Shown here in pieces: positions 358 through 57,341 of a stretch of 64,000 bases of DNA. Origin of the DNA: Haliotis asinina. Lineage: Eukaryota > Mollusca > Gastropoda > Lepetellida > Haliotidae. Numbering within the stretch: position 1 is the stretch's first letter; every line of letters begins with the position of its first letter. The DNA is taken from NCBI RefSeq assembly GCF_037392515.1, contig NC_090291.1, forward strand, positions 38,525,001 to 38,589,000, in the 5' to 3' direction. A model generated the notes under the pieces. It worked only from the letters and a program-made list of their open reading frames with translations. It made no database searches and was not told the DNA's origin. Both the position numbers and the translations under genes were made by a program.

Positions 358-466
358 CTGAAATTAGTTTTGCAGTTGAGTTCGCTGTCTGACAAGCCAC
401 GTGGTCATCACTTCCAAGCAGGTTGCCAATGCGCATGCCCACAGCAATCGACATACCACAGGACAA
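358..466 (-). CDS. MATE gene exon: MRIGN motif; last exon in window
   Basis: This 109-nt exon starts in phase 0 after GCTACAG and ends in phase 1 at a strong GTGAGA donor. It encodes LSCGMSIAVGMRIGNLLGSD and then DHVACQTANSTAKLIS, equivalent to the family's hallmark GFSVAASVRVGNALGAGD followed by an A-rich helix start. The donor shows the gene continues left of base 1; bases 1-357 are intron. Confidence 0.94.
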
Positions 467-3400
467 CTGTAGCAATAAGGTTAGCGATGTTATTGATTGT
501 TTAATATCTAAAGGGTTATGACCACAACTATCTATAATTATAGTTACAAAGAATTTAAGAAGAGCAAAGAGGTTAATACTCTTGCATTCATCCGTATGGT
601 AATAATCAAATACAGTACATTTCCGTTAGTTATGCCGAATACAAAGAAGTCACTATTTCGGTTCCTTATAACCAGAGTTTGTTATCGCATTTTGATTATA
701 TATACACCAACTGGTTGGTTGGCTGGTTGTTGTTTTAAGCAGCAATCTAATATTCAAGCTCTATGGTTTGTAAATAATCGTGTCCCGACCAGACAATCCA
801 GTGATCAACAGCATGGGCATCGATTTAAGCAATTGGGAACCGATGACATGTGTCAACCAAGTCAGCGAGCCTGACAACCCGATCCCGTTAGTCGCCTCTT
901 ACGATAAGCATAGTCGCCTTTTATGGCAAACATGGGTAGATGAAGGCCTATTCTATCCCGGGATCTTCCCGGGTAAGTATATCAATATGTGTCCGTCAGA
1001 AATGTAGTTTAATGTATTATGAACATATGTGTGCATTCTTAGTCAATGTGTGAGTTTGATTTTACGCCGCTTTTATCAATATCACAGCAAGATCACGGCG
1101 GGGTACTGCAGAAATGAGCTTCATACATGAATAGATTCTAGAGAACAGTTTTAGTGATCTGTTCCTCTACTGTTCTACCGCGTTGTACCCGTATGAGGAA
1201 TCGAACCAGGGTCTTAGGCGTGACGAGCGAACGTTGAACCACTACCCCGTCTGCCATGCATATTAGAATGAACGTACCATGTCAGTTAAGGCGACCATTT
1301 GAAACAAGACAGCTTGGGCTGCCAACTGCGCCTTCCCAAGATAACCTGCAAATGAAGGACACAAGTACAGGTGTGGGCGAGCTTGGGTAACATTAACGCC
1401 TCCAGGTCTATTAAGTACATAGCATTATCGGCACAACGACCATATATCTAGTCACTGTTGCATCAGCTCTGTATACACCTTGATACAAAACCTATGTCGA
1501 ACCCGATCACACGATCCCGTTATTGGCGCAACATAGAGACTATGAGTCTTTTTATATGCGAGCGAAGCGAGCGAGGGTTGGCAACCTACTTCACTCGCTT
1601 CGGATCGAAAACTATTTTTCATGTCAAAATAAAATATCGCCACCATCAAATGTACACTCCCATTTCCTCACTTGATCGTGCTCTCAGATTTCCAACCCCA
1701 TATTTAATAATTACTCACGTGAAATATGTTTTATTCATTATTTTAAACGCCCCTCGTGGTATTCCGATCGTTCTTCGCCTCCATTACCCCTGCCAGCTTC
1801 CGACTGAACGGAGTGACGGAACAAGAATAAGCAGAAATATAAAAGAAATACCATTTTGCCTAATTTTATCATGAACCTGTTGGAGTTTATTTGTCTTTTC
1901 TGTCGTCGCTATTTTTAGAATTTTCATAACACTTATTGTACATAAAGAAAAAAAAACCTTCTGGCATTTTGGGCGAATGATGCAGGGAAGGTAACTGTAA
2001 ATATTCCATAAGGAATAAACCCCTCCTGTTCCTTCACTCCTTTGAACCGGAGACTGGAAGGGGGAATGGAGGCGAAGAACGGCCTGAATAACACATGCTG
2101 CGCTAAAAATGTTGAATAGAAATATTTCCCGTGAGTAATTGTTCAACATGGGGTTGGACATGTGAGAGCACACCCCAGTGAATAAATTGGTGTATACGTT
2201 TGATGGTGGCGATGCTGCGCAACTAATTTTGCGCCACAGTTTGCCTGTGCTTTGTATGGACATTTTGACCTTTCGGACACACTGATTTTAAATATGCACG
2301 TACAACAACCAAAGGCGAGAATCACGCGTAGCCGTCATTAAGAGAATATGTTTAAGTTTCAGTAAAATGTTCTTAGAGGTAGATGACCCGGAAAATCAAT
2401 TCAATTCAAAGCAAATATAGGACCTCTGTTAAAGATGGCAAGTTATTGGTATGTATACTGCTATGTCATTGAGGATATATAGGGCCTCTGTTAAAGATGG
2501 CAAGTTATTGGTATGTATACTGCTATGTCATTGAGGATATATAGGACCTCTGTTAAAGATGGCAAGTTATTGGTATGTATACTGCTATGTCATTGAGGAT
2601 ATATAGGACCTCTGTTAAAGATGGCAAGTTATTGGTATGTATACTGCTATGTCATTGAGGATATATAGGACCTCTGTTAAAGATGGCAAGTTATTGGTAT
2701 GTATACTGCTATGTCATTGAGGATATATAGGACCTCTGTTAAAGATGGCAAGTTATTGGTATGTATACTGCTATGTCATTGAGGATATATAGGACCTCTG
2801 TTAAAGATGGCAAGTTATTGGTATGTATACTGCTATGTCATTGAGGATATATAGGACCTCTGTTAAAGATGGCAAGTTATTGGTATGTATACTGCTATGT
2901 CATTGAGGATATATAGGGCCTCTGTTAAAGATGGCAAGTTATTGGTATGTATACTGCTATGTCATTGAGGATATATAGGACCTCTGTTAAAGATGGCAAG
3001 TTATTGGTATGTATACTGCTATGTCATTGAGGATATATAGGACCTCTGTTAAAGATGGCAAGTTATTGGTATGTATACTGCTATGTCATTGAGGATATAT
3101 AGGACCTCTGTTAAAGATGGCAAGTTATTGGTATGTATACTGCTATGTCATTGAGGATATATAGGGCCTCTGTTAAAGATGGCAAGTTATTGGTATGTAT
3201 ACTGCTATGTCATTGAGGATATATAGGACCTCTGTTAAAGATGGCAAGTTATTGGTATGTATACTGCTATGTCATTGAGGATATATAGGACCTCTGTTAA
3301 AGATGGCAAGTTATTGGTATGTATACTGCTATGTCATTGAGGATATATAGGACCTCTGTTAAAGATGGCAAGTTATTGGTATGTATACTGCTATGTCATT

Positions 3401-6400: not shown

Positions 6401-9400
6401 CATGGCAAGTTATTGGTATGTATACTGCTATGTCATTGAGGATATATAGGACCTCTGTTAAAGATGGCAAGTTATTGGTATGTATACTGCTATGTCATTG
6501 AGGATATATAGGACCTCTGTTAAAGATGGCAAGTTATTGGTATGTATACTGCTATGTCATTGAGGATATATAGGACCTCTGTTAAAGATGGCAAGTTATT
6601 GGTATGTATACTGCTATGTCATTGAGGATATATAGGACCTCTGTTAAAGATGGCAAGTTATTGGTATGTATACTGCTATGTCATTGAGGATATATAGGAC
6701 CTCTGTTAAAGATGGCAAGTTATTGGTATGTATACTGCTATGTCATTGAGGATATATAGGACCTCTGTTAAAGATGGCAAGTTATTGGTATGTATACTGC
6801 TATGTCATTGAGGATATATAGGACCTCTGTTAAACATGGCAAGTTATTGGTATGTATACTGCTATGTCATTGAGGATATATAGGACCTCTGTTAAAGATG
6901 GCAAGTTATTGGTATGTATACTGCTATGTCATTGAGGATATATAGGACCTCTGTTAAAGATGGCAAGTTATTGGTATGTATACTGCTATGTCATTGAGGA
7001 TATATAGGACCTCTGTTAAAGATGGCAAGTTATTGGTATGTATACTGCTATGTCATTGAGGATATATAGGACCTCTGTTAAAGATGGCAAGTTATTGGTA
7101 TGTATACTGCTATGTCATTGAGGATATATAGGGCCTCTGTTAAAGATGGCAAGTTATTGGTATGTATACTGCTATGTCATTGAGGATCTTAAATTGACAA
7201 ATGTTCAATAATGGCCAGTTATTCAGGAGCTGATACAGCTTACTAGAAGGGGTGGGGAGGCACACTTTTGAGGATCGATCTTTTATGGTTCATAGAACAA
7301 AGTTTCAGGTCAAGAGGGGGTGTCCGTACCCCTCCATCCACTCTATGTTATTCGTATGCGGAATGCGTATTTCATTGAGGGCCATTGCAATTCAAGCTTG
7401 GTAGTTGGAACAGTGAAACAAATGCACGTGCGGTACGTGATGAGCGTTAACTTAAACCAACCCTACTTGTTCTTGGTGTTTCATTTAGTGTGCGTAATCC
7501 CTTAACATACGAACCAATGATACCAATTTGCACATATGATCGTTTGTTAACGACTTTTATCCTAAGTAGAATATAATTCTGAGATTTAAATTTTCAAATG
7601 GCAAAGTAAAATTATCAGGATTCTCAATTTTAATTTCACTTTATTTCATTTACTTTTCTGTTTGAAGTGAAATTCATCTGTACGTTTTCACCGCAAACAG
7701 ACTATAGTAATGCTTATGTTGTTTCTTGAGAGAATCTTGAAACTAACTCCACCGATAGCGTTATACAACCATAGTTATCGGGAGTACAAAATGCATCTCA
7801 CCCAAACTACTCTAGTTTATTTGTACTACGTACACCCCTATGTATCACCATGGTACTCCACACTGGATACTCATGAACATAAAGCACCAGACACTACAAT
7901 ACCTCGCGACAATACATACCCGTCAGTACAACAACGATCTGGATACACCACCAAGACAGCGCGATCATAATAAAACCAGGAACTGCCAACTCGCCGAAAC
8001 ATTTCCATTCCAGCCAACACCTGGCCGACCAGCCTGAAAAATACCCATCTCCAAGTTAAATGTCATCTTCGACGTTCCTGAACAGAGTATAAACATTTAT
8101 AGCAGATAACATTAGTATCGCAAGCTGTTTGCGTCAGGGAACCACGTAAAATGTCCTGATTCTGTAACAGAGGATATGAACAGGAAGATGATTTTAACGC
8201 AAACGTTTATACACTAGAGAAGGGGTGAGAGGAAAGTATGGGCTAGCTGCCATACACAGTACCAATTTCTATTCCACCTCCAAAAGTTGTAATATATGTA
8301 TTGTTAGATGATAATCATAGATGTTATTTGTATATAATTATTTACAACTCATGTCTATGCTGTTGTCGGAATCATACGCCCCGCCTTTGTAACAAGGGTT
8401 CCTGTGGAATATAATACTCCGTTAAAGACGTTTGTTGACAGATTGATACCTGTCCAGGTAGCATCGTTGATATTTGATCCATAGATATACAACGCGTGCA
8501 TAATGCAGCATGCTCCATAGGTCACACATATCGCCAGTGCAGCCCCTCTAAAATGTACAAATACAATTTATGGTCAAGTGATACACACGTTACTCACAAA
8601 GTTTTACCATAATCTAAACTTGAAAGGTTACTATATTTGTATAGAGATGTACAGAATGTTTCTGTATGTAAAACATCTGTGACATCCATGGTTACCTATG
8701 CAGCGCTCTGTTTTGATTCTGCACCATGCATACTCTCTTGTTTGTTAACGTAGATATTTTACTTGCTTTTGGATATGTTTGATGACATAGTCCAGCGTTT
8801 AAGGCCTTAGAATTTTGAAAAAAAATTCAGTACCAAATCGATTTTGGTTTCAGTATTTAAGTGAAACGTCACAAGGAAATCTGTTTGCCAGAAAACATAA
8901 ACAAGATAAGATTGTTCAAATGTTGTTAGATATGGAAACGTAGAACTGTACTTTGCTATCCCGCAGTCTGGATAACAGGAATTAATGTTATCATAGAATA
9001 ACGGACATGCACGATGGTTTACACTTGAAAATTGGAAAATTAGATCAAAGAATCCAATTTTTGTAAGTCGCCAAAACGTTCCAGCTGACAATGACACCAG
9101 TGAGGTGTTGTACTTACACCATGTCCAGGCCTGCCCAGTGTAGGAACACACTGAAACTGACTATGACACCAGTGAAGTGTTGTACTTACACCATGTCCAG
9201 GCCTGCCCAGTGTAGGAACACCTTGAAACTGACTATGACACCAGTGAAGCGTTGTACTTACACCATGTCGAGGTCTGCCCAGTGTAGGAACACCTTGAAA
9301 CTGACTACGACACTAGTGAAGTGTTGTACTTACACCATGTCGAGGCCTGCCCAGTGTACGAACACATTGAAACTGACTATGACACCAGTGAGGTGTTGTA

Positions 9401-12400
9401 CTTACATCATGTCCAGGCCTGCCCAGTGTAGGAACACCTTGAAACTGACTATGACACCAGTGAGGTGTTGTACTTACACCATGTCGAGGCCTGCCCAGTG
9501 TAGGAACACCTTGAAACTGACTATGGCACCAGTGAAGCGTTGTACTTACACCATGTCGAGGTCTGCCCAGTGTAGGAACACCTTGAAACTGACTACGACA
9601 CTAGTGAAGTGTTGTACTTACATCATGTCGAGGTCTGCCCAGTGTACGAACACATTGAAACTGACTGTGACACCAGTGAAGTGTTGTACTTACATCATGT
9701 CGAGGCCTGCCCAAAGTAGGAACACATTGAAACTGACTATGACACCAGTGAAGTGTTGTACTTACACCATGTCCAGGCCTGCCCAGTGTAGGAACACCTT
9801 GAAACTGACTATGACACCAGTGAAGTGTTGTACTTACATCATGTCGAGGCCTGCCCAAAGTAGGAACACATTGAAACTGACTATGACACCAGTGAAGTGT
9901 TGTACTTACATCATGTCGAGGCCTGCCCACTGTAGGAACACCTTGAAACTGACTATGACACCAGTGAAGTGTTGTACTTACACCATGTCCAGGCCTGCCC
10001 AGTGTAGGAACACACTGAAACTGACTATCACACCAGTGAGGTGTTGTACTTACACCATGTCCAGGCCTGCCCAGTGTAGGAACACATCCAGGGAGAAAAG
10101 GTTGAACATGTTACTAAGCAGAAGCATCACAAGCGTAGGTCTCACGATACCCTTGATCAATAGAATCCAAAAAATCATAAATTGTCATAATATATCATAT
10201 GATAATAAGAAAACATTCGCACTAAAAAATATGAATAATGAATACATTGTAATTAAGTAACTAAACACTTGGATCACAACGATTAAGATATCTGAAATCC
10301 TTTCAATCACATATTTCAGTAAATCTAAACACGAATATGGATAGCTAAATCAACATTTTAGATTGAAAATATTACAAGAAATAAAACGGAAATATAAACC
10401 TGCTAAAATAGTATTAAGAGGAAATATCCTTTGAACGATATAAAACATTCGCTAGCATAGTAAATGTTATTCACCCCAGAGTGTTTATACCCAAAATAAA
10501 AGCGAAAGCGACCCGCCCTTTCCGAAGCCATAAGAAATCTTAGATAAAGTACCACCATCTATGCATGAAAGGTTCCCAACTTGTAATTATGACAAGTGCA
10601 TCCCTCATTACGTTGAAGAGGCGTTTGGTTAGCAAGCGGTTAAAACGTTCACTCGTCACACAGTAGACACGGATTGTACCCATATGAGTACAATGTGTGG
10701 AGCCCAATGTGCCCCGCCTTGATATTGCTTGGATATTGGAAACAGCGGCGTAAAACAAAAGCCGCTCACATATTCCGCTGATGATGGCCAGCGTGGAATT
10801 AAGCTTCGATTTGGGTTTGGTCGTACAGAAACAACGTAACGTGCAATATACATTGGACAGAAACAGGCAGACTGAGGTAAAGGTTTTCGATTCATAGATG
10901 TATACTAAAAGGAAAAAGAAACGGCGTAATATTGGAAATGACATTTAAGCATCAATGGAGTATTTGAACCTATTTGTTTTTTCAAATATACACCGGAAGT
11001 CAAGTTTGAGAGAACTAGGAACCGTGGTCGTATAGTATGTGAAGTATTGTTGGAGATTGAGGTTTGAAATGATTTTGTTTCTGAAAAGGCCAGAGTTCAC
11101 ACAACACAACATTAAAATCGAGATGCACGTGCATCATGCATGCCTTCAGGCATAAATGTCCGGCCTGAATGGCAGTCGTTCACTTGTTTTCTGAACATAG
11201 CAGCTATGGCATCAACGACAACAAGCCATTGGACGTCCACACGTTGGTCAACGTGCTCGAGTCATTGCTAATGACTTTAATTGCAGCGTACGAACGACAG
11301 AACGTCTTTGACCGCCATACAACGCCACCAGTAGCACTGATGACCGTCCACGTAGTGGTCGACCCCGTATAACAAGCCACCAGGACCACCCAGCAACACC
11401 TGCAAGACCAGGGCCACAGAAACAACTCGATGTATCATATGAAAGCAACCAGCGACCAGTCAGTGACTGAACTATTCCTGTTTTGTCGACGTTCTTCTCT
11501 GATGAAAGTCGGTACTTTATTACACATTCTCCAACAACGTTTCTTTTGCGTTTCAGTATATAACTATGCTCCTTGAATCAATATGATAGTAGCAAACTAA
11601 TTAAATAATAAAGAATAGCCTAAGATGCGTTACCTGAGCAAAGAGGTATTTGGACATGACGCTGAATGCTGCATATACCTAAATGTAATAGAATATCTTG
11701 TAAACCATTATGAGTGAGTGAGTGAGTTACTATTTAAGGTCACATCAGCAATATTTTAGCCATACCGTGAAAACGATTGTCTGAATCAACAGGTTACATG
11801 ATTCAGCTACCTTATCCTGAAAACCATTGTCTGCATCGATACGATAATACTGAACATGATTAGTAACATAGCATCCGCATAATTAAAAATTGTATGGTGA
11901 GGGTGCGTGAGCGGGTGTGAGTACGGGTGCATTTGCGTGTTCGGGTGCAGGTGTGGGTGCAAGTGCGGGTGCAGGTGCAATTCGGCAGGGACGTGTAGGC
12001 CGTCTTGGCGACCGAAGAGCGAAACACACCAATCACGCGCAGCATCAATAACTCAAACGCACGTGCGCTGGAATACAACATACGTATTGCTTAATAGCAT
12101 CGAAAGTGTAATTCAATAACATAGCGAGTATGTTGTGATTAACTGATTAACGCGAGCGTGTCATGGGTAGTCTAAATGTTGGGCAGTTCGTGGCGGCAGT
12201 TGCATGAGAATTCAACCACAACATTATTTGAAAACCGGTGTGCAACAAACAGTCACCTTTGCAAGTCACCAATATGAGGTACCAATTCAGATACGTCATG
12301 TCCAGCAGACAGTTGTTCGAAGGTGCCAGCAAACCAGGCGCATAGCAAGCCATTTTATTTCGTGTAAGCCCGTAGATTGCGAAGCGTTATATTTAGACAG

Positions 12401-15400
12401 TATTGGCGGCTTGCCCACAGCCACCGGGGCTTGTAGCGATAAAAGCTGCCATCAGGGTATATACTGTCCCTTTTATAGTACTAATACCCCATCAGGGACA
12501 GTATACACCCTGATGGCACTTTTTAGCGTTACAAGCCCCTGTGCCCACAGCAAAAGTTATGTGTGAGCCCGTTTTTTTATAATGGTAACTACGCCCCTGC
12601 AAACCAACAGGAATCGACTCGGCATCAAAAGTATGAGCTGGACGGACTTACACCATTCTCTTCCCACAGTGGTTACTTGTCACACCTTCCTACGTAACCT
12701 CTGTTCTAATACGACCCTTTCATGGTGCGAGTGTTCAAGACTCGTGGTTGGAGGCAATCAGATTTAGTAGTGCAATCAGCGACCTTGTTTCGAAAGCGAT
12801 CTTTCGAAAGATCTCGGTAATTTCCGGATGCATCGTGAAAACTAGAACCTCTTCACGAGCGCGATGCTCGAATGTTTCTTCTAGATAGAACTCAGTCATG
12901 TCATTTTTGTTTCTCCACATTGCTTGCATTTGTCAAGTTGAATCTAAGTCGATGTAACACGTGTTCTGATTGGACAGAAAAAAGGGAGATAAATCTGCTG
13001 CCATTTTATGCCGCTGGGGGATTATATGAGAACCGAGAAAAATGGCTGTATCAGAACAGAGGTTCGTAGGAAGACATGACAAGTAACCTCTGTGGGAAGA
13101 GAATGGACTCACACAGGACCTATGCTTTTGCAACTGCATCGTGTTCCACGATTACGACAGGTTGGCAGACATACTAGATTCAACAAGACGGAACAGTATT
13201 ATCTTCCATTGGTAGGGCATAGGTCCTCGACACAAATGGGAACAACGTCTAGAACAGTGTTGTGTACGAGTATGTGAGGCTGTAAGATATGGAACGGACA
13301 GCGTTTTGGTTCGGGGAGGAATTTGTGCCAAGTGTCAATCTCAAGGGGCTGGCATCAAGTGCACTCCAGCTATACAATATCAGGATCACGTTTTGACTCC
13401 AGTCCTGCCGCTTATGTGGTTACATGGTCCTAGCGTGATGTCCCGGGAAAATCCATGTTAGAAGTGATCTTCAGTAACCCATGCTTGTCGTAAGAGGCGA
13501 CTAACGGGATCGGGTGGTCAGACTCGCTGGCTAGGTTGACAAACGTCATCGGTTCCCAGTTGCGTAGATGGATACTCATGCTGTTGATCACTAGATTGTC
13601 TGGTCCCATTCTCGATTAATTGCAGACCGCCACCATAAAGTTTGACTATTAGAGCGTGGCGTAAAACTAAACTCACTCACTCATTTACAAGTATGTCGTT
13701 AAGGTGCCTTTTACAGCAACAGATGTGTTTATATTTAATAACAGAGACGTGAAACTGACCGGCAGTGCAGGTATAGAGGCTGTTATGTAGTCTCCCGACA
13801 GTCTGAAACAATACAAAGGAAAATACGTCATCTTGTCATCAGATCGAAGTGAGTATGATTTTACGCCGCTTTTAGCAATATCCCAGCAACATCCCGGCGA
13901 GGGAAACCAGAAATGGGCTTTACACATGTGGGGAATCGAACCCAGATCTTTAGTGTGACGAGCAAACCGCCCTGAGGTCGAGACGGAGACAGTAATGGTA
14001 CTATTATGATAACAACTGACACCATGCTACACGCGGAAACCTGGACCCGGCTCCCGTGAAGATCCGGGCTAGAACAGATCTTCATCAACTCATGCTTCCC
14101 ATAAAAGGCGACAATGCTTGTCGTAAGGGGCGACTAGCGGGATCGGGTGGTCAGACTCGCTGACTTGTTTGACAGATGTCATCGGTTCCCAGTTGTGCAG
14201 ATCGATGCTCCTGTTGTTGATCTCTGGATTGTCTGGTCCAGACTCGATTATTTACAGACCGCTGGAATATTGCTGAGTGCGGCGTAAAACTAAACTCACT
14301 CACTCACCTGGACCCGGTTTTACAAAGCACCCGTAAGTCTAACATCTCGTGCACATCTTATGTTATGTATAGGAGAAAACTCGCCTCCGAGGTTTTGGTA
14401 GACAGGGTAAAACCGGAGGGGGAGGGAAACCTCGAGGGATTTCCCGACCCCGAGGAGAAGTGTTTTCTCAAACATATATACCGTCAATAATGGGAAATTT
14501 CAATGTATAGATGATCATTTCATGAAGCTACATAACAATAACTGAAGCGCGCGTAAATCAATTTAATGACAGTAACTATAAATAGATAATAAACCACATC
14601 ATCTACGTCGTGCGGTAGAGCGTTTGTCTACGGATCTGAGATTCCAGTCTCGCTTAGGAAAACATTTCTGTTGTGAGTTGAAACTTGAACGATATTTTTC
14701 AAATGATTGCAAACATTTGATTGTTGATGTTCATATAAAGTTAGGAAAAGTAAAACCTGGGAAGCGGCCTTACTAACGGAAAGTAACACCTGTGAAGAGG
14801 TCTTTCTACCAAAAACAAAAACCTCCAATGCTGTTATTCTGGGAAAACAAGAGATGTAGGGAGTTGGGGGAGAGAGACCTGAACTTTCAATCTGGATAGG
14901 AAGTATAAGTGTTAACAAACCTTTCAGAGACAGACATTTTATGAACGCCCCGCCATTTCTTTTTATCATCACCCTAAACAACACGTGGGATACACGTGCA
15001 CAATGCAGTAGCACACACATGCATGGGGTGTCATTCTTGATTTTGACTGTTTATTGATGGTCGATAAATCCCTGTGGACCATTACATGTTGTATCACACA
15101 GTTGTTAGTGTTTGTTTCTAGTAGTTGTTTTGGTTTGAAAATAAATATCGTACACATGCAAATTTCACGTCATACACCACTCTGCTTTCATGAGTGATTC
15201 CTGTACAAACAACTATGAAACTTGCAAACTAACAAACTACTTGCCATAAGAAGCAAGTGGTGATGCACTCTCAAAACATTCATTATTATCATATCAACAC
15301 TGACTGATCCCGATATATCCCCCACCGGACAAAACATTCCCCTGTTTTTTTGTAGAGTATATTTCAAGATCGATAGCTACGACACAAGGCCGTGCGAGAT

Positions 15401-18400
15401 CAAGCTGAAACTGCGAATCAAACCGTTGTACATTTTCCGGACGGTACTAAGTACAGGTTACAGTCAGATCAGGGAAAACCGAATCCCCCAAATTTTAACA
15501 GCTTATTTTGTCTCAGTCCTCTGTGTATGTGTTATAGATGTTAACACTGCCATATCACAATAAACTAAGCCGGCTTCCCCTCTCATTAACTTACATATTC
15601 CACCTGTTGCCGTTGAGCGAAAACCAATGTAATTTGTATGTAAATTTGTTCTGATGTATTATCAAGGACTTTCGTAGATGTGGCTGAAATGCGTTTCACG
15701 CAGCAAATACATGAAAACGGCACGTTTCACACAATAGAGGCATATGATATCCATTCTGTCTAGTTAATTAGAAACATTTGAACTCCACTGTTAAAACATA
15801 TTGATATAATGCTATTGTTATACCATGTTAGAAGTTAAATTTATTCCACACTCCTGGACCAGTAGTCATTATGAAGCATATGTTTGCTCTCATTTCAGTG
15901 AACATGACGTTATCCCCATGACTAGATTATTTACCATACTTTCTTGTTCTATGACAAGTGTTGAGCCTATTTGAATGTAAGCGAATGAATATGGTTTCAC
16001 ACCGCTATGAGCAATTTTGCAGCCATATGATGGCGGAAACACCAGAATTAGGCTTCGCGCACTGTATCCATGTGTGCAGTGAGTGAGTGACTGAGTGAGT
16101 TTAGTTTTACGCAATATTCCAGCTATATGGCGGCGGTCTGTAAATAATCGAGTCTGGACCAGACATTCTAGTGATCAACAGCATGAGCATCGCTCTGAGC
16201 AACTGGGAACCGATGACATGTGTCAACCACGTCAGCGAGCCTGACCACCCGATCCCGCTAGTCGCCTCTTACGACATGCATAGTCGCATTCTATGGCAAA
16301 TGTGGGTTGCTGAAGGCCTATTCTATCCCGGGACCTGGACGGGTTATCCATGTAAGGAATCGAACAAGGGTCTTCGGCGTGACGAGTGAACGCTCTAACC
16401 ACAAGGCTATCCAAACGACCTCTATTTAAATGTAGTTGTTGTAATACTATGCTAAAACGTTAAAGCCATGTTATATTGCTATTCGCGAATACAGTAAACT
16501 ATGTTTACAATGAACACGTTTAATACGAACTGACAGACAAACCCGATCAGTTTCTTTTGGACTGATTGTTTAGTCAAAGTCATATAATGAATAACAGGAA
16601 CCAATGTTTACCTGGAGACGTCTGGGTTTTGTCCAAAAGCCAACAGTATACGTTCGACGTTGATGTAGAGGGCAATGCAAGGAATACTCGCCAACATGTT
16701 GATCAGCAGTGCTGAAATGAGACAATAACACCACCTAGAACATCACTTTTCATACATAAGATAGATGAGGCTCACTTGGATTGTTATTTGCAATGACATC
16801 TGACATCAAATGGCGTCCATAACCGGTTCGGAGAGGTAGGGTAGCCTAGTGGTTAAAGTGTTCGCTCCTTACACCGCAGACCCGAGTTCAGTTCTCCACA
16901 TAAATGTCTGAACTCCCAGGTTTGGTGTCTCCATCAAGATATGGTTGGAATATTACTAAAATCGGCATAAAATCGCACTCACTCATACCTTGTCAAAGAT
17001 GTAAACATGCTGTGAGTATTATCCTTTTATTCATTTATGGTTTTTAATCAATTTGACGCTGTAGCAATTCAGTGAATTAACCAATCGTTCTTGTCTGTAA
17101 GTATACCTACCTCTTTGGAGCAAAATCCCAAGGTTCTTTTTGTTGGTACTGCCATATGTCTGAAACCAAACATTTAACATGTACAATTTTTACACAAGCC
17201 AAGAGATTGATTATTTCAATTTTATCGACTAAGTGGAGAAGTGAAAAGATCTGGATTTGTTGAAATCAGTTTCTTCAGAGTTTACCATCAGGAAGTTTCA
17301 TATTTGATATCCCCCAAAATACGAGTCAGGCAATGTAATTTTCGTTTTCAGGTATCATGATTCGGATGCAGTCACCATAAACACGTTCTGTCAACACCCC
17401 ATAAACTTCCCACCTGTCCCTGAATTCCACTCCAGAAAGTTAACATGTAACCACCGGTTATCACGCCGTTCTTTTTCAGAATTTTCCCTGTTCTACTTTG
17501 TGTTGTGTAGTTTTCCTGAACTAGGAACGCAACATGCATCGATACGAAAAATTGTACACATTCACATCTTTAATACTTTTCACGAACGATTTGATAAATA
17601 ATCCACACATTCGTCACTACAAACCGTTCATTCAGACATCAAATGTGATTTGTTCATGCTCTATTAAATTTGGAAAAAAAAATGTCCGCATATGTACCTG
17701 TGGAAACAGCGTGTCACAAGCTGAGTTAATACCGATCATTATGGAAGAACCAAACACCTCGAAAACCTGAAGGAATAAGGCGGACATATATGTACTGTTG
17801 ATATTGGTATATAGAGAGTCTCACCCAAGTGTCTACTGATATCAAATATATCAACACGAGTTGATAAAGTAAGAAATATCCGAGGCTTGCCGGTGATATT
17901 CTTACCTTTATCAAGGAGTGCAACGATGTCATAGCATTGTGACGTCACCAGGTTCATGAGGTCATAGCATTGTGCAAAATCTACTGTCAAAGCGATATCT
18001 CTAGGAGATATCGTCTGATCTCACACAAGTGATATCTCCTGTGGAACACAGGTTTGGATGATTGCAGTTCATAGATATCTTGGGTTTGACGATAGCCAAG
18101 TATATAAAATGTATATTACTCTGTCAGATAAATTCATTGTGCTCATACTGAAAGTTTTCAACAAAGTCATGTTCTGTTAGAGTTTCTTTGTTAAACTGCT
18201 AGCATTTTTCAACAAGAAAAAGTAAATCTCCTGGGAAAACAAAATAGACACATGATATTATTTTCACATCAATAATAGCATCCACTATATACAATGTGCA
18301 CACAATTTCCTTTTGAATTTAGAGAAAATTCACTCAGAGTAGTTCCTGTGAAGCCGTTTATCACATGAGAAAATTACGGGTACTTCCGGTATTTGGTCAT

Positions 18401-20607
18401 GAAGTCTATAAAATGAGAAAATTCAGAGTACTTCCAGTATGTGGTCACAACGATTATTCTATGAAAACAATTCCGTGTACTTCCGGTATTTGGTCATGAA
18501 GTTTTTATCATGAGAAAATTCCAAGTACTACCTGACGTTTATCATATGCTGAGTGGTGTTCACAATGATGCAAAGCAGTGTCGCATCCTTGTAATCACAG
18601 ATAGTGATATCCGATAACTAATAAGATGTGATAACCCAGCTGGTACTACGTTCCTACTTTCGTACATGAGTGAGTGAGTGAATGAGTGAGTAAGTGTGTT
18701 TATTTTTACGCCGCACTCAGCAATATTCCAGCTATATGGGGTCGGTGTGTAAATAATCGAGTCTGTACCAGAGAATCCAGTAATCAACAGCATGAGCACC
18801 GATTGAGAACCGACGATGTGTCGATCTATAGCCAGCAAGCCTGATTGCCCATCCCCTTAGTCGCATCTTACGACAAGCATGGGTTGCTGCAGATCAGTTC
18901 TAAACCATAACGGTTTATCGTACATGGATGTAGTACCTAAAGGTCCATTCTCACGGTGTGACATGTATTAACTGCTCGTACAATCGACCCGAGATGCAAC
19001 ATGAGAACACCCTTGTCCTGTCAACCTTGACACGCGCTCAACCAGTTGAAAGCTAGTTAACATAGTTCAATAGAAACTTCCCTATTTCATGCGACAGATC
19101 GTATGGATTTGACCTATCAAAAACGTCGAAACAGTAGGGCAAGAGTTCACTCCCTTTGTAAACAAGGTACCACCGGCGGTAGGCTCGCGCAGTAGCAAAC
19201 GGGTTTGTGTTTTGTTATTCTTTTCATTTACCAAATATACGGCAATTAACGCCAGCCTTTCCTCTTCGCTTGATGACGCCATTTTGCTTGGCAACGACGA
19301 GATTATCGCTACAGATTCCGAGTCGTACCAAGTCATTTATGTACGATTTTCAAATCAACTTGTAGATATTACAGGTTGTTACTACAAGTCGCACCGTGAG
19401 AACGGACCTTCACTACTCTATAAAGTATTCCCTACAGTTATAAATAGTATTATCGTGGTGGGGTAGCCTCGTGGTTGAAGTGTTCGCTCGTCAAACCGAA
19501 GAACCAGGTTCGATTCCTCACTCGTGTAAAATGTGTGAAGCTCATTTTTCTAGTATCTTCCAAGGTGATATTGCTGGAATATTGTTAAAAGCGGCTTAAA
19601 ACTAAACTCATTCACTTTGAATAATCTAATATTCATCCCCGTGCTTATTGCCCACTGTTTACAAAAATGGCGGCAAATCGTTTGGCGAGACCCAATCACA
19701 TAGACTGATGCTCACGGTGTCAGTCACTGGATTGTCTGGTACAGACTTGATTATTTACAGACCGCCGTCGTGTAGCTGGAATATTGCTGAGTGCGGTGGT
19801 AAACAATAAGCAAGCAAGCAAACAAACAAACAAACATTTGGTAAGACCAACATGTAAGATAGGACATAAAATTATAGACTTTTTCCTCAGTTCGTGGGAC
19901 CGTTTTCTCATTTCTCGTACGCAACGTAGTTGTTCCTAGTACCTCCCGGTGGTTGTTATCCGTTTTCTCAAGTTATAACTTAAAGGTTTGTTTATTTAGT
20001 GATTGTTACTCTAATTCATTTCCGAATAGTAAGTCAACAGATTAGGAATAATCCGTCAGTTAGTAATTGAGTTCAAGTTTACGCCGCTTTTAGCAACATT
20101 CCAGCAATATCACGGCGGACGACACACGAAACGGGCTTCACACATCATAATCCATATATGGAATCGAACCCGGTCTTCAGCGGACGCCTTAACCATTAAG
20201 CAACCCCACCGCCACAGGAATAATCAATGTGTATAGTGATCTCCAAATGACTCGCATAATTCAGGAACTACTACACGCTCTTTGCGATACTCAAGCGCCT
20301 TTGGCTAATTAAAAATGTCAGTATTTGTCACAACATACAGCCTGTCCGAGCGCTGTAGCGTCCAGCTGAAGCCTGCCCAGGTGACCGGTAAACATGGCGT
20401 TAATGGTGAATATAAACTGCTCCAGTAAAGACGACGCAGTCTGTGTAATGTCAAAAAAGAAGCCTGGATAAATGAACTTATGGCATTTTATGGAATCCAT
20501 ATCTGAAGAAAGCCAAGACGGGGAAGTCTTTTCAAATGACCTTCTATAAGCAAAGCGATGTTAACAACTACCCGAAGTTCCAGCACGTTCAGTGTCGAAG
20601 TTTTCAT
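358..20607 (-). CDS. MATE-family multidrug/toxin extrusion transporter (SLC47A-like), multi-exon, C-terminus outside window
   Basis: The family comprises polytopic membrane antiporters that expel organic cations in exchange for protons, mostly at plasma membranes. Ten exons on the minus strand translate to about 295 residues colinear with vertebrate MATE1 as I remember it, and every intron has GT..AG ends with matching phase. Landmarks in order are GHLGRLQLDA, SACDTL, QTYGS-like then LGILLQR, GQNPDVSR, YITASIPALP, GIVRP, FLHWAGLDMVGAALA, ATWTGW, LSWW, AAQAV and MRIGNLLGSDD. Family members are about 570 residues, so roughly the last 270 are left of base 1. Exons are 358-466, 1278-1345, 7920-8033, 8450-8547, 10054-10151, 13715-13802, 16612-16711, 17111-17159, 17698-17757 and 20339-20440, plus a candidate first exon 20541-20607. 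The family call is secure from the motifs; substrate is not predictable. Confidence 0.93.
467..749. other. MATE intron sequence, no feature recognised
   Basis: This is AT-rich sequence with short open frames that show no domain or repeat I recognise. Confidence 0.6.
750..985 (-). mobile_element. Long-type tRNA-related SINE copy, tail missing
   Basis: The body with the GACCAGACAATCCAGTGATC box, the GTCAACCAAGTCAGCGAGCC box and the TATCCCGGGATCTTCC end is plain. The 3' tail (at the low coordinate) is absent. Confidence 0.85.
1047..1258 (-). mobile_element. Short-type tRNA-derived SINE copy
   Basis: Read on the minus strand, a tRNA-like head (TAGTGGTTCAACGTTCGCTC, B box near GGTTCGATTCC at about 1200) is followed by the short body and the tail AAAATCAAACTCACACA. 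About 60 bp in the middle is atypical. It ends 20 bp from a MATE exon. Confidence 0.75.
1278..1345 (-). CDS. MATE gene exon: LGKAQLAAQAV helix
   Basis: This 68-nt exon starts in phase 1 after TTTGCAG and ends in phase 0 at GTACGT. It encodes YLGKAQLAAQAVLFQMVALT, matching ILGMVELGAQSIVYELAIIV. It is separated from the previous exon by a 6.6-kb intron, three quarters of which is satellite DNA. Confidence 0.93.
1525..2253. mobile_element. Foldback element, two diverged inverted arms
   Basis: Bases 1525-1823 and 2027-2253 are inverted copies of one sequence, roughly 75% alike by eye, around a spacer of about 200 bp. Both arms hold GGAGGCGAAGAACG and GTGAGTAATT. The left arm also carries the nested palindrome GCGAGCGAAGCGAGCG, a part the right arm lacks. 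A third single arm lies at 26560-26868. No transposase is present, so it looks like a non-autonomous foldback or MITE family. Confidence 0.7.
2421..7187. repeat. Satellite array, 62-bp unit x 77, in a MATE intron
   Basis: The unit begins GACCTCTGTTAAAGATGGCA and ends GAGGATATATAG. The length equals exactly 77 units minus a 1-bp deletion in the unit starting at 4901 and minus the last 6 bp. Units are nearly identical. Ten units start GGCC instead of GACC (unit starts 2483, 2917, 3165, 4157, 4529, 5024, 5954, 6078, 6388, 7132). Five carry AAACATGG instead of AAAGATGG (6078, 6140, 6202, 6388, 6822). Lone changes occur in the units at 4095 and 4715. No unit is open across frames, so it is non-coding. 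Confidence 0.98.
7188..7919. other. MATE intron, no feature recognised
   Basis: Sequence between the satellite and the exon at 7920. Open frames here have no recognisable domain. Confidence 0.6.
7920..8033 (-). CDS. MATE gene exon: GWS..C..W and LSWW helix
   Basis: This 114-nt exon is phase 1 at both ends, from TTTTTCAG to a GTATGT donor. It encodes WSARCWLEWKCFGELAVPGF and IALSWWCIQIVVVLT. It corresponds to WSLECLQDWASFLRLAIPS and LCMEWWAYEV in MATE1, which form helix 7. Confidence 0.94.
8450..8547 (-). CDS. MATE gene exon: GAALA helix and DATWT
   Basis: This 98-nt exon begins after TTTTAG, its first A completing the split Val codon of the previous exon, and ends in phase 1 at GTATCA. It encodes GAALAICVTYGACC, LYIYGSN and DATWT, equivalent to GSALANLISQ...LYILGKKLHQATWG. 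The frame runs on to a stop near 8367, but the donor and the next exon show that it is not terminal. Confidence 0.94.
8548..9083. other. MATE intron, no feature recognised
   Basis: Unique-looking AT-rich intron between the exon at 8547 and the 72-bp array. A minus-strand open frame (8807-9151) is partly array and otherwise featureless. Confidence 0.6.
9084..10086. repeat. 72-bp minisatellite x 14 made from an exon 3' end plus splice donor
   Basis: Fourteen copies of 72 bp (TATGACACCAGTGAAGTGTT, GTACTTACACCATGTC, CAGGCCTGCCCAGTGTAGG as plus-strand landmarks). On the minus strand each copy reads VFLHWAGLDM followed by the GTAAGT donor of the MATE exon that ends at 10054. The donor hexamer is kept in all 14 copies. 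Copies 3-4 resemble copies 7-8, suggesting a higher-order period of four units, and copies 9 and 11 share an AAAGTAGG variant. Because 72 is a multiple of three, a 389-codon plus-strand frame spans the array; it is an artefact. Confidence 0.95.
10054..10151 (-). CDS. MATE gene exon: GIVRP...FLHWAGLDM; its 3' end is the seed of a minisatellite
   Basis: This 98-nt exon starts in phase 0 at GIVRPTLVMLLLSNMFN and ends LFSLDVFLHWAGLDM plus GT, at a perfect GTAAGT donor. It matches the family's GIVLPQ...LFLHQLHLGVIG. The last ~33 coding bases and the donor are also present in 13 further tandem copies immediately downstream in the intron. The unique 5' part of the exon identifies this copy as the authentic one. 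Confidence 0.94.
10152..11199. other. MATE intron, no feature recognised
   Basis: AT-rich intron sequence; minus-strand frames at 10540-10944 show no known domain or splice-consistent exon. Confidence 0.55.
11200..11465 (+). pseudogene. Tc1/mariner transposase fragment, N-terminal DNA-binding region
   Basis: One frame reads STDDRPRSGRPRIT followed by HQDHP, the typical second helix-turn-helix end of Tc1-like transposases. The helix before it lies in another frame and no catalytic domain follows, so it is a decayed fragment inside a MATE intron. Confidence 0.7.
11696..11850 (-). mobile_element. Relic of the LINE 3' tail
   Basis: GAGTGAGTGAGTTACTATTT is followed by GGTCACATCAGCAATATTTT and AGCCATACCGTGA, the terminal box of the LINE family; the rest has decayed. 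Confidence 0.6.
11895..11980. repeat. Degenerate GGGTGC-rich simple repeat
   Basis: About 85 bp of loosely repeated GGGTGC/GTGCGG hexamer-like units, G-rich on the plus strand. Confidence 0.8.
12427..12541. repeat. Long hairpin, ~47-bp arms
   Basis: The left arm GGGGCTTGTAGCGATAAAAG and following CATCAGGGTATATACTGTCC pair with a right arm at 12496-12541, with few mismatches and a short AT-rich loop. Such near-palindromes are typical of tiny foldback elements, or could be a hairpin RNA; nothing decides between these. Confidence 0.85.
12640..13115. mobile_element. Inverted-repeat element with ~70-bp arms
   Basis: Bases 12650-12720 and 13040-13115 are inverted copies (GTAGGAAG, AGAACAGAGGTT, GTGGGAAGAGAATGG) around a ~320-bp core. 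The core has no transposase and holds the perfect 16-bp palindrome GATCTTTCGAAAGATC at 12798-12813. It is probably a non-autonomous DNA element. Confidence 0.7.
13437..13684 (+). mobile_element. Long-type SINE copy with tail
   Basis: Starts near CCCGGGAAAATCCATG, contains the TCATCGGTTCCCAGTTGCG and GATTGTCTGGTCC boxes, and ends GGCGTAAAACTAAACTCACT. It abuts a MATE exon at 13715. Confidence 0.88.
13715..13802 (-). CDS. MATE gene exon: YITASIPALP
   Basis: This 88-nt exon starts in phase 2 and ends in phase 0 at a GTAAAA donor. It encodes LSGDYITASIPALPVSF, matching the family's YVTIFIPALPATF; spacing from F to the next exon's GIV equals that of MATE1. Confidence 0.92.
13852..13975 (-). mobile_element. 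Short-type SINE copy
   Basis: Tail-side GAGTATGATTTTACGCCGCT at the low end and a reversed B box (GGGAATCGAACCC) near 13930; the tRNA-like head is cut. Confidence 0.8.
14046..14310 (+). mobile_element. Long-type SINE copy with tail
   Basis: From CGTGAAGATCCGGGC to GGCGTAAAACTAAACTCACT plus extra CACT units; a short inner duplication of the CGACAATGCTTGTCG part is visible. Confidence 0.88.
14373..14469. repeat. Small foldback hairpin
   Basis: GAGAAAACTCGCCTCCGAGG pairs imperfectly with CGAGGAGAAGTGTTTTCTC at the other end, giving a ~97-bp hairpin with a purine-rich middle. Confidence 0.6.
14470..16074. other. MATE intron, no feature recognised
   Basis: About 1.6 kb with no exon, domain or known repeat seen. 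A weak tRNA-like stretch near 14605-14655 may be an old SINE head. Confidence 0.5.
16075..16418 (-). mobile_element. Full-length long-type tRNA-derived SINE
   Basis: Most complete copy here, ~340 bp. On the minus strand it has a tRNA-like head (GTTAGAGCGTTCACTCGTCA, then a B-box relic at 16357-16366), the whole long body, then GCGTAAAACTAAACTCACTC and more CACT tail. One 12-bp part of the terminal box is missing. Confidence 0.9.
16612..16711 (-). CDS. MATE gene exon: helix 3 and GQNPDVSR
   Basis: This 100-nt exon starts in phase 1 after TTTCAG and ends in phase 2 at GTAAAC. It encodes a hydrophobic helix and then ILLAFGQNPDVS, with the R completed by the next exon, equivalent to ILLLFRQDPDVSR in MATE1. 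Confidence 0.94.
16833..16987 (+). mobile_element. Short-type tRNA-derived SINE
   Basis: Head GGTAGCCTAGTGGTTAAAGT, GTTCGCTCC and a degenerate B box, then a short body and a CGCACTCACTCAT tail. It lies about 120 bp from a MATE exon. Confidence 0.85.
17111..17159 (-). CDS. MATE gene exon: TYGS..LGILLQR
   Basis: This 49-nt exon starts in phase 0 after TTTCAG and ends in phase 1 at GTAGGT. It encodes TYGSTNKKNLGILLQR, matching the family's TYGSQNLKHVGVILQR. Confidence 0.93.
17698..17757 (-). CDS. MATE gene exon: SACDTL motif
   Basis: The exon has twenty codons, phase 0 at both ends, flanked by AG and GTACAT. It encodes GINSACDTLFPQ, equivalent to the family's GLSSACDTLISQ, which ends the second helix. 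Confidence 0.92.
18363..18545. repeat. Degenerate ~49-bp tandem repeat, about 3.7 copies
   Basis: Units share ATGAGAAAATT, GTACTTCCGGTATTTGGTCA and GAAG. They lie in the MATE intron between exons 17757 and 20339. Confidence 0.85.
18667..18905 (-). mobile_element. Long-type SINE copy
   Basis: Tail GAGTGAGTGAATGAGTGAG at the low end, TTTTTACGCCGCACTCAGC, the CAGAGAATCCAGTAATCAAC box and GCATGGGTTGCTG. It is diverged in the middle. Confidence 0.85.
19452..19617 (+). mobile_element. Short-type tRNA-derived SINE, intact head and tail
   Basis: Head GGGGTAGCCTCGTGGTTGAA, perfect B box GGTTCGATTCC at 19507-19517, body with ATATTGCTGGAATATTG, tail GGCTTAAAACTAAACTCATTC. Confidence 0.9.
19695..19835 (+). 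mobile_element. Long-type SINE, 3' half
   Basis: Contains TGGATTGTCTGGTACAGAC, GATTATTTACAGACCGCCG and AGCTGGAATATTGCTGAGTG; the usual CACT tail is replaced by AAGCAAGCAAACAAAC repeats. Confidence 0.85.
20066..20218 (-). mobile_element. Short-type tRNA-derived SINE
   Basis: Tail side GAGTTCAAGTTTACGCCGCT at the low end, reversed B box GGAATCGAACCC near 20160 and a reversed tRNA-like head to about 20218. Confidence 0.85.
20339..20440 (-). CDS. MATE gene exon: transmembrane helix 1 and GHLG motif
   Basis: The exon has 34 codons, phase 0 at both ends. It begins after a pyrimidine-rich acceptor ending ACACAG and ends at a GTATGT donor. The translation contains LLEQFIFTINAMFTGHLG followed by RLQLDATALGQA, which matches the family's first helix and the GHLG-x-LELDA segment. 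An alternative acceptor at 20463 keeps the frame open. Confidence 0.92.
20541..20607 (-). CDS. Candidate first coding exon of the MATE gene
   Basis: An ATG at 20607 opens a frame of 22 codons rich in hydrophobic residues, with ELRVVVNIALLIE at its end, which resembles the ELR-type start of transmembrane helix 1 in MATE proteins and lies at the right distance. A GT donor follows base 20541, but its phase (1) does not fit the favoured acceptor of the next exon at 20440. It fits an alternative acceptor at 20463, which would add eight residues. Start and splice choice are therefore unsettled, and an upstream exon is possible because the frame is open above the ATG. Confidence 0.4.
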
Positions 20608-21059: not shown

Positions 21060-21571
21060 GTGTAACTTACCACAGGCCAGGCCAATGTAAGCATCGCCTT
21101 CAGTTCATCCTTGTAAGCTGTAGAGAACACCCAGCTGTTAAATCGCAAACACCGATAGCTTGCTGGTCTGGATTCATCTGCCACACACAAATACCATTAA
21201 CTTCGAAGCTGTTTATCAGGGGACATATAGAGTATGTCATTGACAAGCAGTCAAATAGAGGTGTACGCGTTTGTTGCATTGATGAATCGCGTGTCCTGCA
21301 ACAACGGGATGGGAGACAACGTGTTTATCGTGTCTGCGTTCGAAAGGTGAACTGATTCAGTGGTTGTTGCGTCATGGTGTGGGGTCACACGGATAGCTCA
21401 GAGCTGATGGTGATTCAAGGCAATCTTACAACAAATGGCTACATTAACCAAATCCTGTGACCTCACAGCTTCCTATGATTTACTACGACAAAAGCTCAAC
21501 CCAACACAGCTCGTGTAACAAGTGACCTATCTCGCCAATGCAAACGTCAATGTCCTTCCCTGGCCTACCAA
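21060..21571 (+). pseudogene. Tc1/mariner transposase, catalytic part, decayed and split by a LINE
   Basis: Across frames the segments CIDESRVLQQRDGRQRVYR, VMVWGHTDSSELMVIQGNLT, YINQIL, NTARVTSD and ANVNVLPWP follow the order of a Tc1-like DDE domain. The first catalytic D (IDES) remains, while the QDNARPH motif has lost its D. Frameshifts and stops separate the segments. The sequence resumes at 22214 after an inserted LINE tail. Confidence 0.85.
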
Positions 21572-43403: not shown

Positions 43404-43864
43404 TCTTCAACTGGACATATATGTGTGCTTATACCTCAGACGTTCTCTGTGTTTGCCAGAGATCCTGCTCTAGCTCACAGAATTGATCCAATGAATACGG
43501 CACCAGCATCAAGTATCATAAAGTAGAAAGCAAACATCAATAAATGAACACACCATTTAGTGCCATGTGTGTATGTGACAATCCATCATCGCATTATATG
43601 TGTACAATGCATGTTAATAACATGGCCATCATGGGTGTGATCCACTCTCCACTTATTGGGGTTAATAATTAAGCATTCAGTTATATTCTGTAAAAGGAGA
43701 AATCCAATAATGGAAATCTTTCACAAGTCATCTGTCATTTAAGTTCAGTAACTGACGTATTTCGGTAAGAAGTGTCAAATCTTATTGGATGTACACGTTT
43801 CAGAAAACCGATGACTTCATTGTATTTAGCAACCAAATAGTCTGTGTTTTGTTGTATATAAGCA
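43404..43864. other. Upstream flank of the lectin gene
   Basis: Partly homologous to 56800-57032 upstream of the inverted paralogue (CATGATGG, TTGATGC..., GAAGAATG near the start codon). No TATA box is convincing. Confidence 0.5.
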
Positions 43865-46497: not shown

Positions 46498-46803
46498 CAC
46501 GTTTGCGACGCGATCATACCAAACAAACCCATCCTGATAAGACCAAGTTACATATCATGGATGAATAATGAAATACGCTCACATAAGAAAACGTAATGGG
46601 CAACACAAAATCGACAAGAGAACTAACCCTCCGCTCGAATAGCAAAAAGTCAGATCTGTCAGAAATAACTAGTCAGTAATATCTTCTGTATGTAAAGCTA
46701 AAAACAGTACACAAACAAAATCGATATAGCAATAAGTCAACCAACTGATACACAACATGCCGACATGGTTTCAAGCTAAAAAAGTAAGGGCATTTTTTGT
46801 GAT

Positions 46804-56734: not shown

Positions 56735-57032
56735 AACTATGTGAAAATATTATATTATGTAAAATATTTATTGCTATGGGTGGCCAGATGATCATGCTTC
56801 TTTGTTTCAGTGAAGTTTACTCAGAAATGTCACACGTTGGTACACTACACTTATAACGGGATGGTGATTGATGGTGGCATACCTGATATTAGTAGTATGC
56901 CCTGATGCTGATGCCTTATTCATTGTGGCCATTCTTTTACAAGTGAAGCATTTCATTTGAAAACTTTTAGTGAACTAGATAAGGATATCTAGATAACACA
57001 GAGAAAAGGGGAGACACAGGCACGGTTGAAGA

Positions 57033-57341
57033 ATGGGTTTGGTACATCACTCTACTCAACTTGTGCTTCTCCTTTGTGGAGTAAGTGGTTTTGTCATGTG
57101 TCAGAACTGCTTTGGGGATCCAGTACAGCATGGCAAGTACATGGAACACCAGGTGTTCAGGAAGTTCGGGAGTCCGTCTCTATACGAGTGTGTGTCTGAA
57201 TGCCTTACGTCCTCCGTATGCCGCTCATTTGCTTTTCAACACAAGACACAGACATGTTTTCTAAACAATAACAGCAGTGCTCAACTGAACATTTCTCTAA
57301 GATCTGGTTTCGACTTCAGTGATATCCAGCAATGGACCAAG
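57033..57341 (+). CDS. Lectin paralogue exon 1: signal peptide and PAN/Apple-like domain
   Basis: ATG at 57033, leader LVLLLCGVSGFVM, then CQNCFGDPVQHGKYMEHQ, YECVSECLTSSVC and FAFQHKTQTCFLNNNSS, ending QQWTK before GTAAGT. Confidence 0.91.

What the first reader, a model, noticed from the sequence alone, without database searches (positions are those of the whole stretch)
9084..10151. A coding-exon end and its splice donor amplified 14 times as a minisatellite
The 72-bp unit contains the last ~33 coding bases of the MATE exon and its GTAAGT donor. The authentic copy is joined to the unique exon part at 10087-10151. Downstream in the intron lie 13 more exon-end plus donor cassettes, each with an intact GTAAGT. 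Because the unit is 24 codons long, use of any later donor keeps the phase. However, the skipped donor itself reads GTG TAA or ATG TAA in frame, so every later donor gives an early stop. The array is thus a string of decoy 5' splice sites beside one exon of a transporter, and could lower or tune productive splicing or buffer mutations of the first donor.
Basis: partly seen in the sequence, partly recalled or inferred. Interest (0 to 1): 0.88.

Follow-up and report, generated by a model that had tools for sequence, protein, structure and literature searches.

The report
Abalone exon-end minisatellite ("mirage" type)
In an abalone drug-transporter gene the last 33 coding bases of one exon and the splice signal behind them are repeated 14 times in a row; only the first copy would give a working protein, and the rest look like a harmless repeat of a kind described before in amphioxus.

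Summary
Fourteen 72-bp units (13 of 13 steps exactly 72) lie at 9085-10086. On the minus strand each holds the last 33 nt of a MATE/SLC47 exon and an intact GTAAGT. The gene looks intact: 12 exons in the window align without gaps over 321 aa (87% identical) to Haliotis rubra MATE1-like. The species is Haliotis asinina, inferred. The true exon is 10151-10054. Its own donor (10053) keeps the frame; each of the 13 later donors gives the same stop, LDMV*, so the array cannot rescue a lost first donor. Donor intactness needs no selection (P 0.23), 7 of 13 extra copies have changed amino acids, and 7% of random 72-bp units in this gene would straddle an exon edge. It is a known kind: amphioxus "mirages" (minisatellites over exon-intron boundaries, reported not to disturb regular splicing); human IFI6 is a second precedent. 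It is not alone: of 23 other donor-bearing arrays examined in this genome, 3 end a family-supported exon (Ig, P450, SLC6) and 2 more look similar. Most likely a neutral repeat with at most leaky mis-splicing. No RNA was available; donor use is untested.

The parts
9085..10086 (-). Exon-end/splice-donor minisatellite, 14 units of 72 bp (33 nt coding exon end + 39 nt intron start)
10054..10151 (-). MATE exon 7 (98 nt, phase 0 in, phase 2 out): GIVRPTLVMLLLSNMFNLFSLDVFLHWAGLDM+GT; 10087-10151 unique, 10054-10086 repeated
   Evidence: same junction in P0001, P0003, P0074
10048..10053 (-). Authentic donor GTAAGT (context GGT|GTAAGT)
   Evidence: only donor of 14 that leaves the frame open
9112..9981 (-). 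13 further intact GTAAGT donors (9981, 9909, 9837, 9765, 9693, 9621, 9549, 9477, 9405, 9333, 9261, 9189, 9117); 5 (copies 3, 4, 6, 7, 10) are GAT|GTAAGT
8548..10053 (-). Intron 7, 1506 nt, about two thirds array
8450..8547 (-). MATE exon 8, begins A|GGG GCT GCA (V)GAALA
11634..11678 (-). MATE exon 6b, 45-nt microexon VYAAFSVMSKYLFAQ
13760..13802 (-). MATE exon 6a
16612..16711 (-). MATE exon 5
17111..17159 (-). MATE exon 4
17698..17766 (-). MATE exon 3
20339..20440 (-). MATE exon 2
   Evidence: (Pfam MatE, exons 2-3 joined)
21071..21142 (-). MATE exon 1, 3' part (5' limit and start codon not determined)
7920..8033 (-). MATE exon 9
1278..1345 (-). MATE exon 10
358..466 (-). MATE exon 11; further exons lie outside the window (L009)

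Best explanation
A 72-bp segment straddling the 3' end of exon 7 and the start of intron 7 of an apparently intact SLC47/MATE gene was tandemly duplicated and then amplified by multi-unit unequal exchange into a 14-copy minisatellite of the 'mirage' type. The copy attached to the unique exon sequence is spliced as before, and the other 13 lie in the intron. Use of any later donor would give LDMV-stop at codon 194 of the modelled protein (whose first residues are missing) and, by inference, an mRNA open to nonsense-mediated decay. The array is therefore neutral, or at most a source of low-level unproductive splicing. Shown: anatomy, reading frame, identity of the true exon, stop for all 13 later donors, no other copy of the unit found in the genome search. 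Inferred: use of donor 1, mRNA decay, neutrality, copy-number instability.
For: Gap-free 321-aa alignment, 87% identical, of 12 predicted exons to H. rubra MATE1-like. H. asinina P0001 is identical from a Met inside exon 7 through exon 11, with the junction LDM|VGAALA and no array-derived residues; its contig length, 58,286,999, equals that of the window's contig C12. Human MATE1 (PDB 9r10) aligns through the junction. Donor 1 open, donors 2-14 all stop. 7 of 13 extra copies carry non-synonymous changes in VFLHWAGLDM while the authentic copy matches H. rubra. Invariance of the six donor columns has P=0.23 given 15 variable columns of 72, the ragged end of copy 14 left out. Copies 7/11 and 8/12 differ by 2 and 1, copies 4/6 by 1, a sign of multi-unit duplication. 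A random 72-bp unit in this gene span overlaps an exon edge with P=0.071. Other exon-end/donor arrays in the same genome have periods 57, 64, 58, 50 and 67, so no frame rule. [quoted passage not shown]
Against: No RNA evidence. Five later donors score above the authentic one on a recalled weight matrix (7.42 against 5.69) and lack a small hairpin predicted over the authentic donor in a 23-nt fold (0 to -0.3 against -5.5 kcal/mol); a fold of the whole region says otherwise (authentic donor unpaired 0.47, more than 12 of the 13 others). Exon 7's acceptor scored lowest of the ten scored (exon 6b, scored later, is lower). So appreciable mis-splicing is possible. The H. asinina model P0001 starts inside exon 7 rather than at exon 1, which I cannot explain.
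Confidence: 0.83

Rival explanations
1. Decoy/tuning model of the first reader: later donors compete for U1 snRNP, and copy number sets the fraction of MATE transcripts that stop at LDMV and decay.
For: 14 of 14 donors intact; 5 of 13 extra donors predicted stronger and free of the local hairpin; all 13 give a stop.
Against: Donor invariance is expected by chance at P=0.23; similar arrays occur in other genes; amphioxus mirages are reported not to disturb regular splicing; in the whole-region fold the authentic donor is more open than 12 of 13 others; no RNA.
Confidence: 0.1
2. In-frame mini-exon model: acceptors inside the units (GTCAG|) plus the unit donors make cassettes, mostly 39 nt, adding 13 residues each.
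For: Of 209 acceptor/donor combinations of 300 nt or less, 50 are in frame and 15 also free of stops (12 of the 15 were printed, 10 of them 39 nt long). The GTCAG| acceptors score -1.0 to -2.3, close to the gene's own weak acceptors at exons 6b, 7, 8 and 9 (-0.8 to -2.2).
Against: No such residues in P0001, P0003 or P0074; the insertion would fall at a junction that is gap-free in the alignments seen.
Confidence: 0.02
3. Assembly error in the array or its copy number.
For: Copy number of tandem arrays is often misassembled (general knowledge); the amphioxus report notes an aberrantly assembled mirage.
Against: Units differ from one another (mean pairwise 7.4%) and the array is only 1 kb. P0001 comes from the same contig, so it is no independent support.
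Confidence: 0.05

Closest known systems
'Mirage' minisatellites of amphioxus (Adh3; globins BflGb6, BflGb9), PMC3087553, passages read
   Same: [quoted passage not shown] splice signals in many copies; unit 10-72 bp at Adh3; both boundary sides known; concerted turnover.
   Different: Mollusc instead of cephalochordate; unit a multiple of three; every later donor gives the same immediate stop; splicing and haplotype instability not measured here.
Human IFI6 (6-16/G1P3) minisatellite, Turri et al. 1995 (paper not held; seen as a citation and one describing sentence)
   Same: A minisatellite that supplies several splice donors to one transcript.
   Different: There two downstream repeat units are said to serve as donors and give protein isoforms; here all 13 later donors stop translation.
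Intron gain by boundary-crossing tandem duplication (potato RdRp, PMC4974935, abstract; human variable internal tandem repeats, PMC2812944, passages)
   Same: Tandem duplication across an intron-exon boundary that duplicates splice signals.
   Different: Those are linked to new introns; no new intron is evident here.
Polymorphic intron minisatellite of Haliotis discus hannai TSSK1-like (PMC6905558, passages)
   Same: Abalone intron minisatellite, there reported to vary in repeat number among individuals.
   Different: 27-bp unit inside an intron; no exon edge mentioned in the passages seen.

Membership tests
Mirage (exon-intron-boundary minisatellite) | Tandem repeat units that include exon end and intron start, one copy being the real exon edge | tested here: met
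Mirage (exon-intron-boundary minisatellite) | Unit length as reported (10-72 bp at Adh3; 150-160 bp in globins) | tested here: met
   72 bp; range from PMC3087553
Mirage (exon-intron-boundary minisatellite) | Copies carry splice signals (many, not all, in amphioxus) | tested here: met
   14 of 14 GTAAGT
Mirage (exon-intron-boundary minisatellite) | Regular splicing unaffected | not testable with these tools
   Only annotated proteins, consistent with it
Mirage (exon-intron-boundary minisatellite) | Copy number unstable between haplotypes or cells | not testable with these tools
   One assembly only
Mirage (exon-intron-boundary minisatellite) | Homogenised inside, cluster edges excluded | tested here: inconclusive
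   Copy 14 differs from the others by 5-11, copy 1 by 3-9, but some inner copies also differ by up to 8 from each other
IFI6-type donor minisatellite | Later donors give in-frame protein variants | tested here: not met
   0 of 13 later donors leave the frame open
IFI6-type donor minisatellite | Later donors are used in mRNA | not testable with these tools
   No RNA
SLC47/MATE transporter (host gene) | MatE profile and alignment to animal MATEs | tested here: met
   PF01554 27.9 bits over cut-off 24.9 for exons 2-3 (1 of 4 queries; the other 3 gave none); NCBIfam matE 23.2 bits, below its cut-off 147.4, for exons 6-8; human MATE1 6.1e-22; H. rubra 87% over 321 aa

The most novel reading that the evidence does not exclude
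Exon-end/splice-donor minisatellites form a genome-wide class in abalone, recurring in many genes (here MATE; Ig, P450 and SLC6 genes; perhaps a dynein-like gene whose 57-bp units stay open for 131 codons), and their copy number shifts the ratio of productive to truncated or length-variant transcripts, making them a fast-mutating splicing dial and a source of new introns or inserted peptides.
Probability: 0.12. Interest if true: 0.72.

Novelty: new member of a known kind. Interest (0 to 1): 0.42.

Why it matters
It extends 'mirage' minisatellites, which I met in print only for amphioxus (plus the related human IFI6 case), to an abalone, and shows in one genome several coding genes with the same geometry. 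Fourteen near-identical donors in a row, five of them predicted better than the real one, are a natural test of how the spliceosome picks the exon-proximal donor, and of whether array copy number leaks into gene expression. It also warns annotators: boundary arrays may disturb gene models (H. rufescens P0048 is annotated with six copies of one exon piece at 43-residue steps).

Tried and rejected
Rejected: array as a dispersed satellite (unit found only at this locus in the genome search; no unit elsewhere in the window). Rejected: another copy being the true exon edge (only copy 1 adjoins exon sequence). Not supported: selection keeping donors intact (P=0.23). Rejected by argument, not by test: the plus-strand 397-aa open frame and the minus-strand open frames over the array as genes (a 72-bp unit without a stop in a frame stays open through the copies). 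Replaced: my first exon 6, with a 14-residue mis-spliced end; H. rubra showed that it is split into 6a and a 45-nt 6b. The queries and row 1 of the alignments still carry that error; carry a similar mis-joined exon 6. RNA accessibility was wrongly normalised and is replaced, in which the authentic donor is more open (0.47) than 12 of 13 others (0.16-0.44; copy 6 0.48), against the local-hairpin result. Splice scores use weight matrices recalled from memory, so only rankings are used. The donor motif is not clearly over-represented among arrays: 583 matches against 1003 for the reversed pattern, 723 against 540; matches are clustered, so these are not array counts. A count of single AGGTAAGT sites, which would help to give the expected share of arrays at true donors, did not complete.
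Full report
OBSERVATION. The array is real: TRF reports period 72, 13.9 copies, 93% matches at 9085-10087. On the minus strand 14 units at exact 72-nt steps each carry GTAAGT (14 of 14). The unit is 33 nt of exon end plus 39 nt of intron. Mean pairwise difference is 7.4% (8.6% in the exon-like part, 6.4% in the intron part).

THE GENE. Reading exons by frame and homology gives a MATE/SLC47 gene on the minus strand. A probe recalled from memory (human MATE1) located most exons; a composite of exons matched human MATE1 in the PDB at 6.1e-22 and, for exons 2-3, Pfam MatE (27.9 bits against cut-off 24.9; the other three of four queries gave nothing; NCBIfam matE was hit below its cut-off). With H. 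rubra P0074 as guide, 12 coding exons with GT-AG splice sites make one open frame that aligns to P0074 over 321 residues with no gap and 87% identity. The start codon was not determined. H. asinina P0001 is identical from a Met inside exon 7 through exon 11, and its contig length equals that of the window's contig, so I infer that the window is H. asinina. The remaining residues of P0001 are encoded in the adjoining 10 kb.

THE TRUE EXON EDGE. Exon 7 is 10151-10054; it ends ATG GT|GTAAGT (phase 2), and exon 8 begins A GGG GCT GCA, giving LDM-V-GAALA. The three fetched proteins that hold WAGLDM, P0001 (H. asinina), P0003 (H. rufescens) and P0074 (H. rubra), all continue directly with VGAALA (3 of 3, among 129 proteins fetched). 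H. cracherodii P0002 lacks exons 5-8 in its annotation, so it says nothing about this edge.

CONSEQUENCE OF THE EXTRA DONORS. Splicing was modelled for each of 14 donors to exon 8: donor 1 gives an open frame; donors 2-14 (13 of 13) stop at the same codon, HWAGLDMV*, because the authentic donor itself reads GTG TAA. Thus the extra copies cannot replace the first donor, and any use of them is unproductive. Five of them have A at -2 and score better than the authentic donor on a recalled matrix. In a 23-nt fold the authentic donor forms a small hairpin (-5.5 kcal/mol) that these five lack (0 to -0.3); but in a fold of the whole 1131-nt stretch the authentic donor is more open (0.47) than 12 of 13 others, so structure gives no clear verdict. 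Leaky use, preferentially of copy 3 (9909), the nearest higher-scoring one, is a prediction, not a result.

SELECTION OR NOT. Of 72 columns, 15 vary when the ragged end of copy 14 is left out (19 with it); six invariant donor columns then have P=0.23. In the exon-like part 7 of 13 extra copies (3, 4, 6, 7, 8, 11, 12) have amino-acid changes in VFLHWAGLDM, while the authentic copy equals H. rubra. Copies 7 and 11, 8 and 12, 4 and 6 are near-identical at a distance, a sign of multi-unit duplication. A random 72-bp unit within the gene span meets an exon edge with probability 0.071, a donor edge 0.038. All this fits a neutral array that happened to start across an exon edge.

RECURRENCE IN THE GENOME. 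Two patterns (three AGGTAAGT at 40-70 and at 70-100 spacing) were searched in the whole 1.14-Gb genome. Only the first places of each were listed (C1-C2 and C1-C3); they fall into 10 arrays and 13 further ones, and all 23 were fetched and read. Nineteen upstream open frames from 17 arrays were sent to Pfam in three calls; two arrays (L041, L043) were sent twice. Six arrays (L051, L053, L055, L057, L059, L062) were not sent: five showed no frame of 22 residues or more, and L057 only repeat-derived ones. Of L041, L047, L049, L050, L054 and L060 only one of several frames was sent, and some pieces were trimmed. Three arrays end a family-supported exon at the first donor: Ig V-set (27.9 bits, cut-off 26, L041, 64-bp unit); P450 (E 5.3e-4, 19.3 bits, below the cut-off 22.8, but P450 2B6 in the PDB at 8e-5; L042, 58-bp); SLC6 (31.6 bits, cut-off 27, L047, 50-bp). 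Two more look like coding ends to my eye (L040 dynein-like, 57-bp; L049 like a small membrane protein, 67-bp) but got no Pfam support, and L040 none in the PDB. The other 12 arrays sent gave no support. In 4 of these 5 the frame after the first donor stops within nine codons; in L040 it stays open for 131 codons through the units, so it would be the better candidate for IFI6-like peptide insertion. Donor-motif arrays are not clearly commoner than reversed-motif ones (583 against 1003; 723 against 540 matches), so array birth is probably blind to donors.

A MIRROR CASE. H. rufescens P0048 is annotated with six copies of VLGGVVRGIGHQRFGACVTFLAYYAI at exact 43-residue steps, separated by five copies of LTHYSYIVLMIIFPLQ, which reads like an intron end with a pyrimidine tract and CAG. 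In H. asinina that exon was found once, with no array called there.

COMPARISON. Tandem repeats spanning exon-intron boundaries were named 'mirages' in amphioxus Adh3 and found in two globin genes; units 10-72 bp or 150-160 bp, both boundary sides, many but not all copies with splice signals, suggested not to interfere with regular splicing, and unstable in length (PMC3087553, passages; the Adh3 paper itself was not read). Human IFI6 has a minisatellite that provides several donors (Turri et al. 1995, seen only as citations and one sentence). The abalone array meets the anatomical features of a mirage and fails the in-frame feature of IFI6. Variation of an intron minisatellite among individuals is on record for another abalone gene (PMC6905558, passages). 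My ten answered paper searches listed no report of such arrays in molluscs that I recognised, but none used the word mirage, listings were capped, and the library is partial, so I claim no priority.

VERDICT. Observation confirmed, mechanism most likely ordinary: a mirage-type minisatellite with silent extra donors. The interest lies in the recurrence in one genome and in the ready-made test of donor choice.

Noticed in passing
H. rufescens protein P0048, residues 127-367: Six identical 26-residue exon pieces at 43-residue steps with five intron-like linkers ending IIFPLQ: probably an acceptor-side boundary array in the orthologous gene; P0002 of H. cracherodii has one similar linker read through.
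   Followed up: partly
L040, L041, L042, L047, L049: Other exon-end/donor arrays in the same genome (dynein-like by eye, Ig V-set, P450, SLC6, small membrane protein by eye); L040 stays in frame through its units.
   Followed up: partly
2415-7187: 77 copies of a 62-bp unit lie in intron 9; in the gene's sense 75 TTTAACAG acceptor-like sites were counted, 71 of them scoring above several real acceptors of the gene on a recalled matrix.
   Followed up: partly
46800-47667: A 52-bp array (16.7 copies) shares GACAAGCATGGGTTA with single places at 13475, 18872 and 51013 (19 matches in all with up to 1 mismatch, 0 expected), so it probably grew out of a dispersed repeat.
   Followed up: partly
9067-10260 (+): 397-aa open frame on the plus strand across the array, an effect of a 72-bp unit without stops in that frame.
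   Followed up: no
P0001, H. asinina: The NCBI model starts at a Met inside exon 7 although the exons found upstream are in frame with it.
   Followed up: no
43041-43406 (-) and 57030-57575 (+): Two closely similar open frames (around HQVFRKFGSPSLYECVSECLTSSVC) on opposite strands, apparently duplicated genes.
   Followed up: no
39599-39886 (-) and 62575-62922 (+): Two similar cysteine-rich, sushi-like open frames on opposite strands (label by eye).
   Followed up: no
58468-61605 (-): Open frames that look like pieces of a non-LTR retrotransposon (endonuclease, reverse transcriptase; by eye).
   Followed up: no
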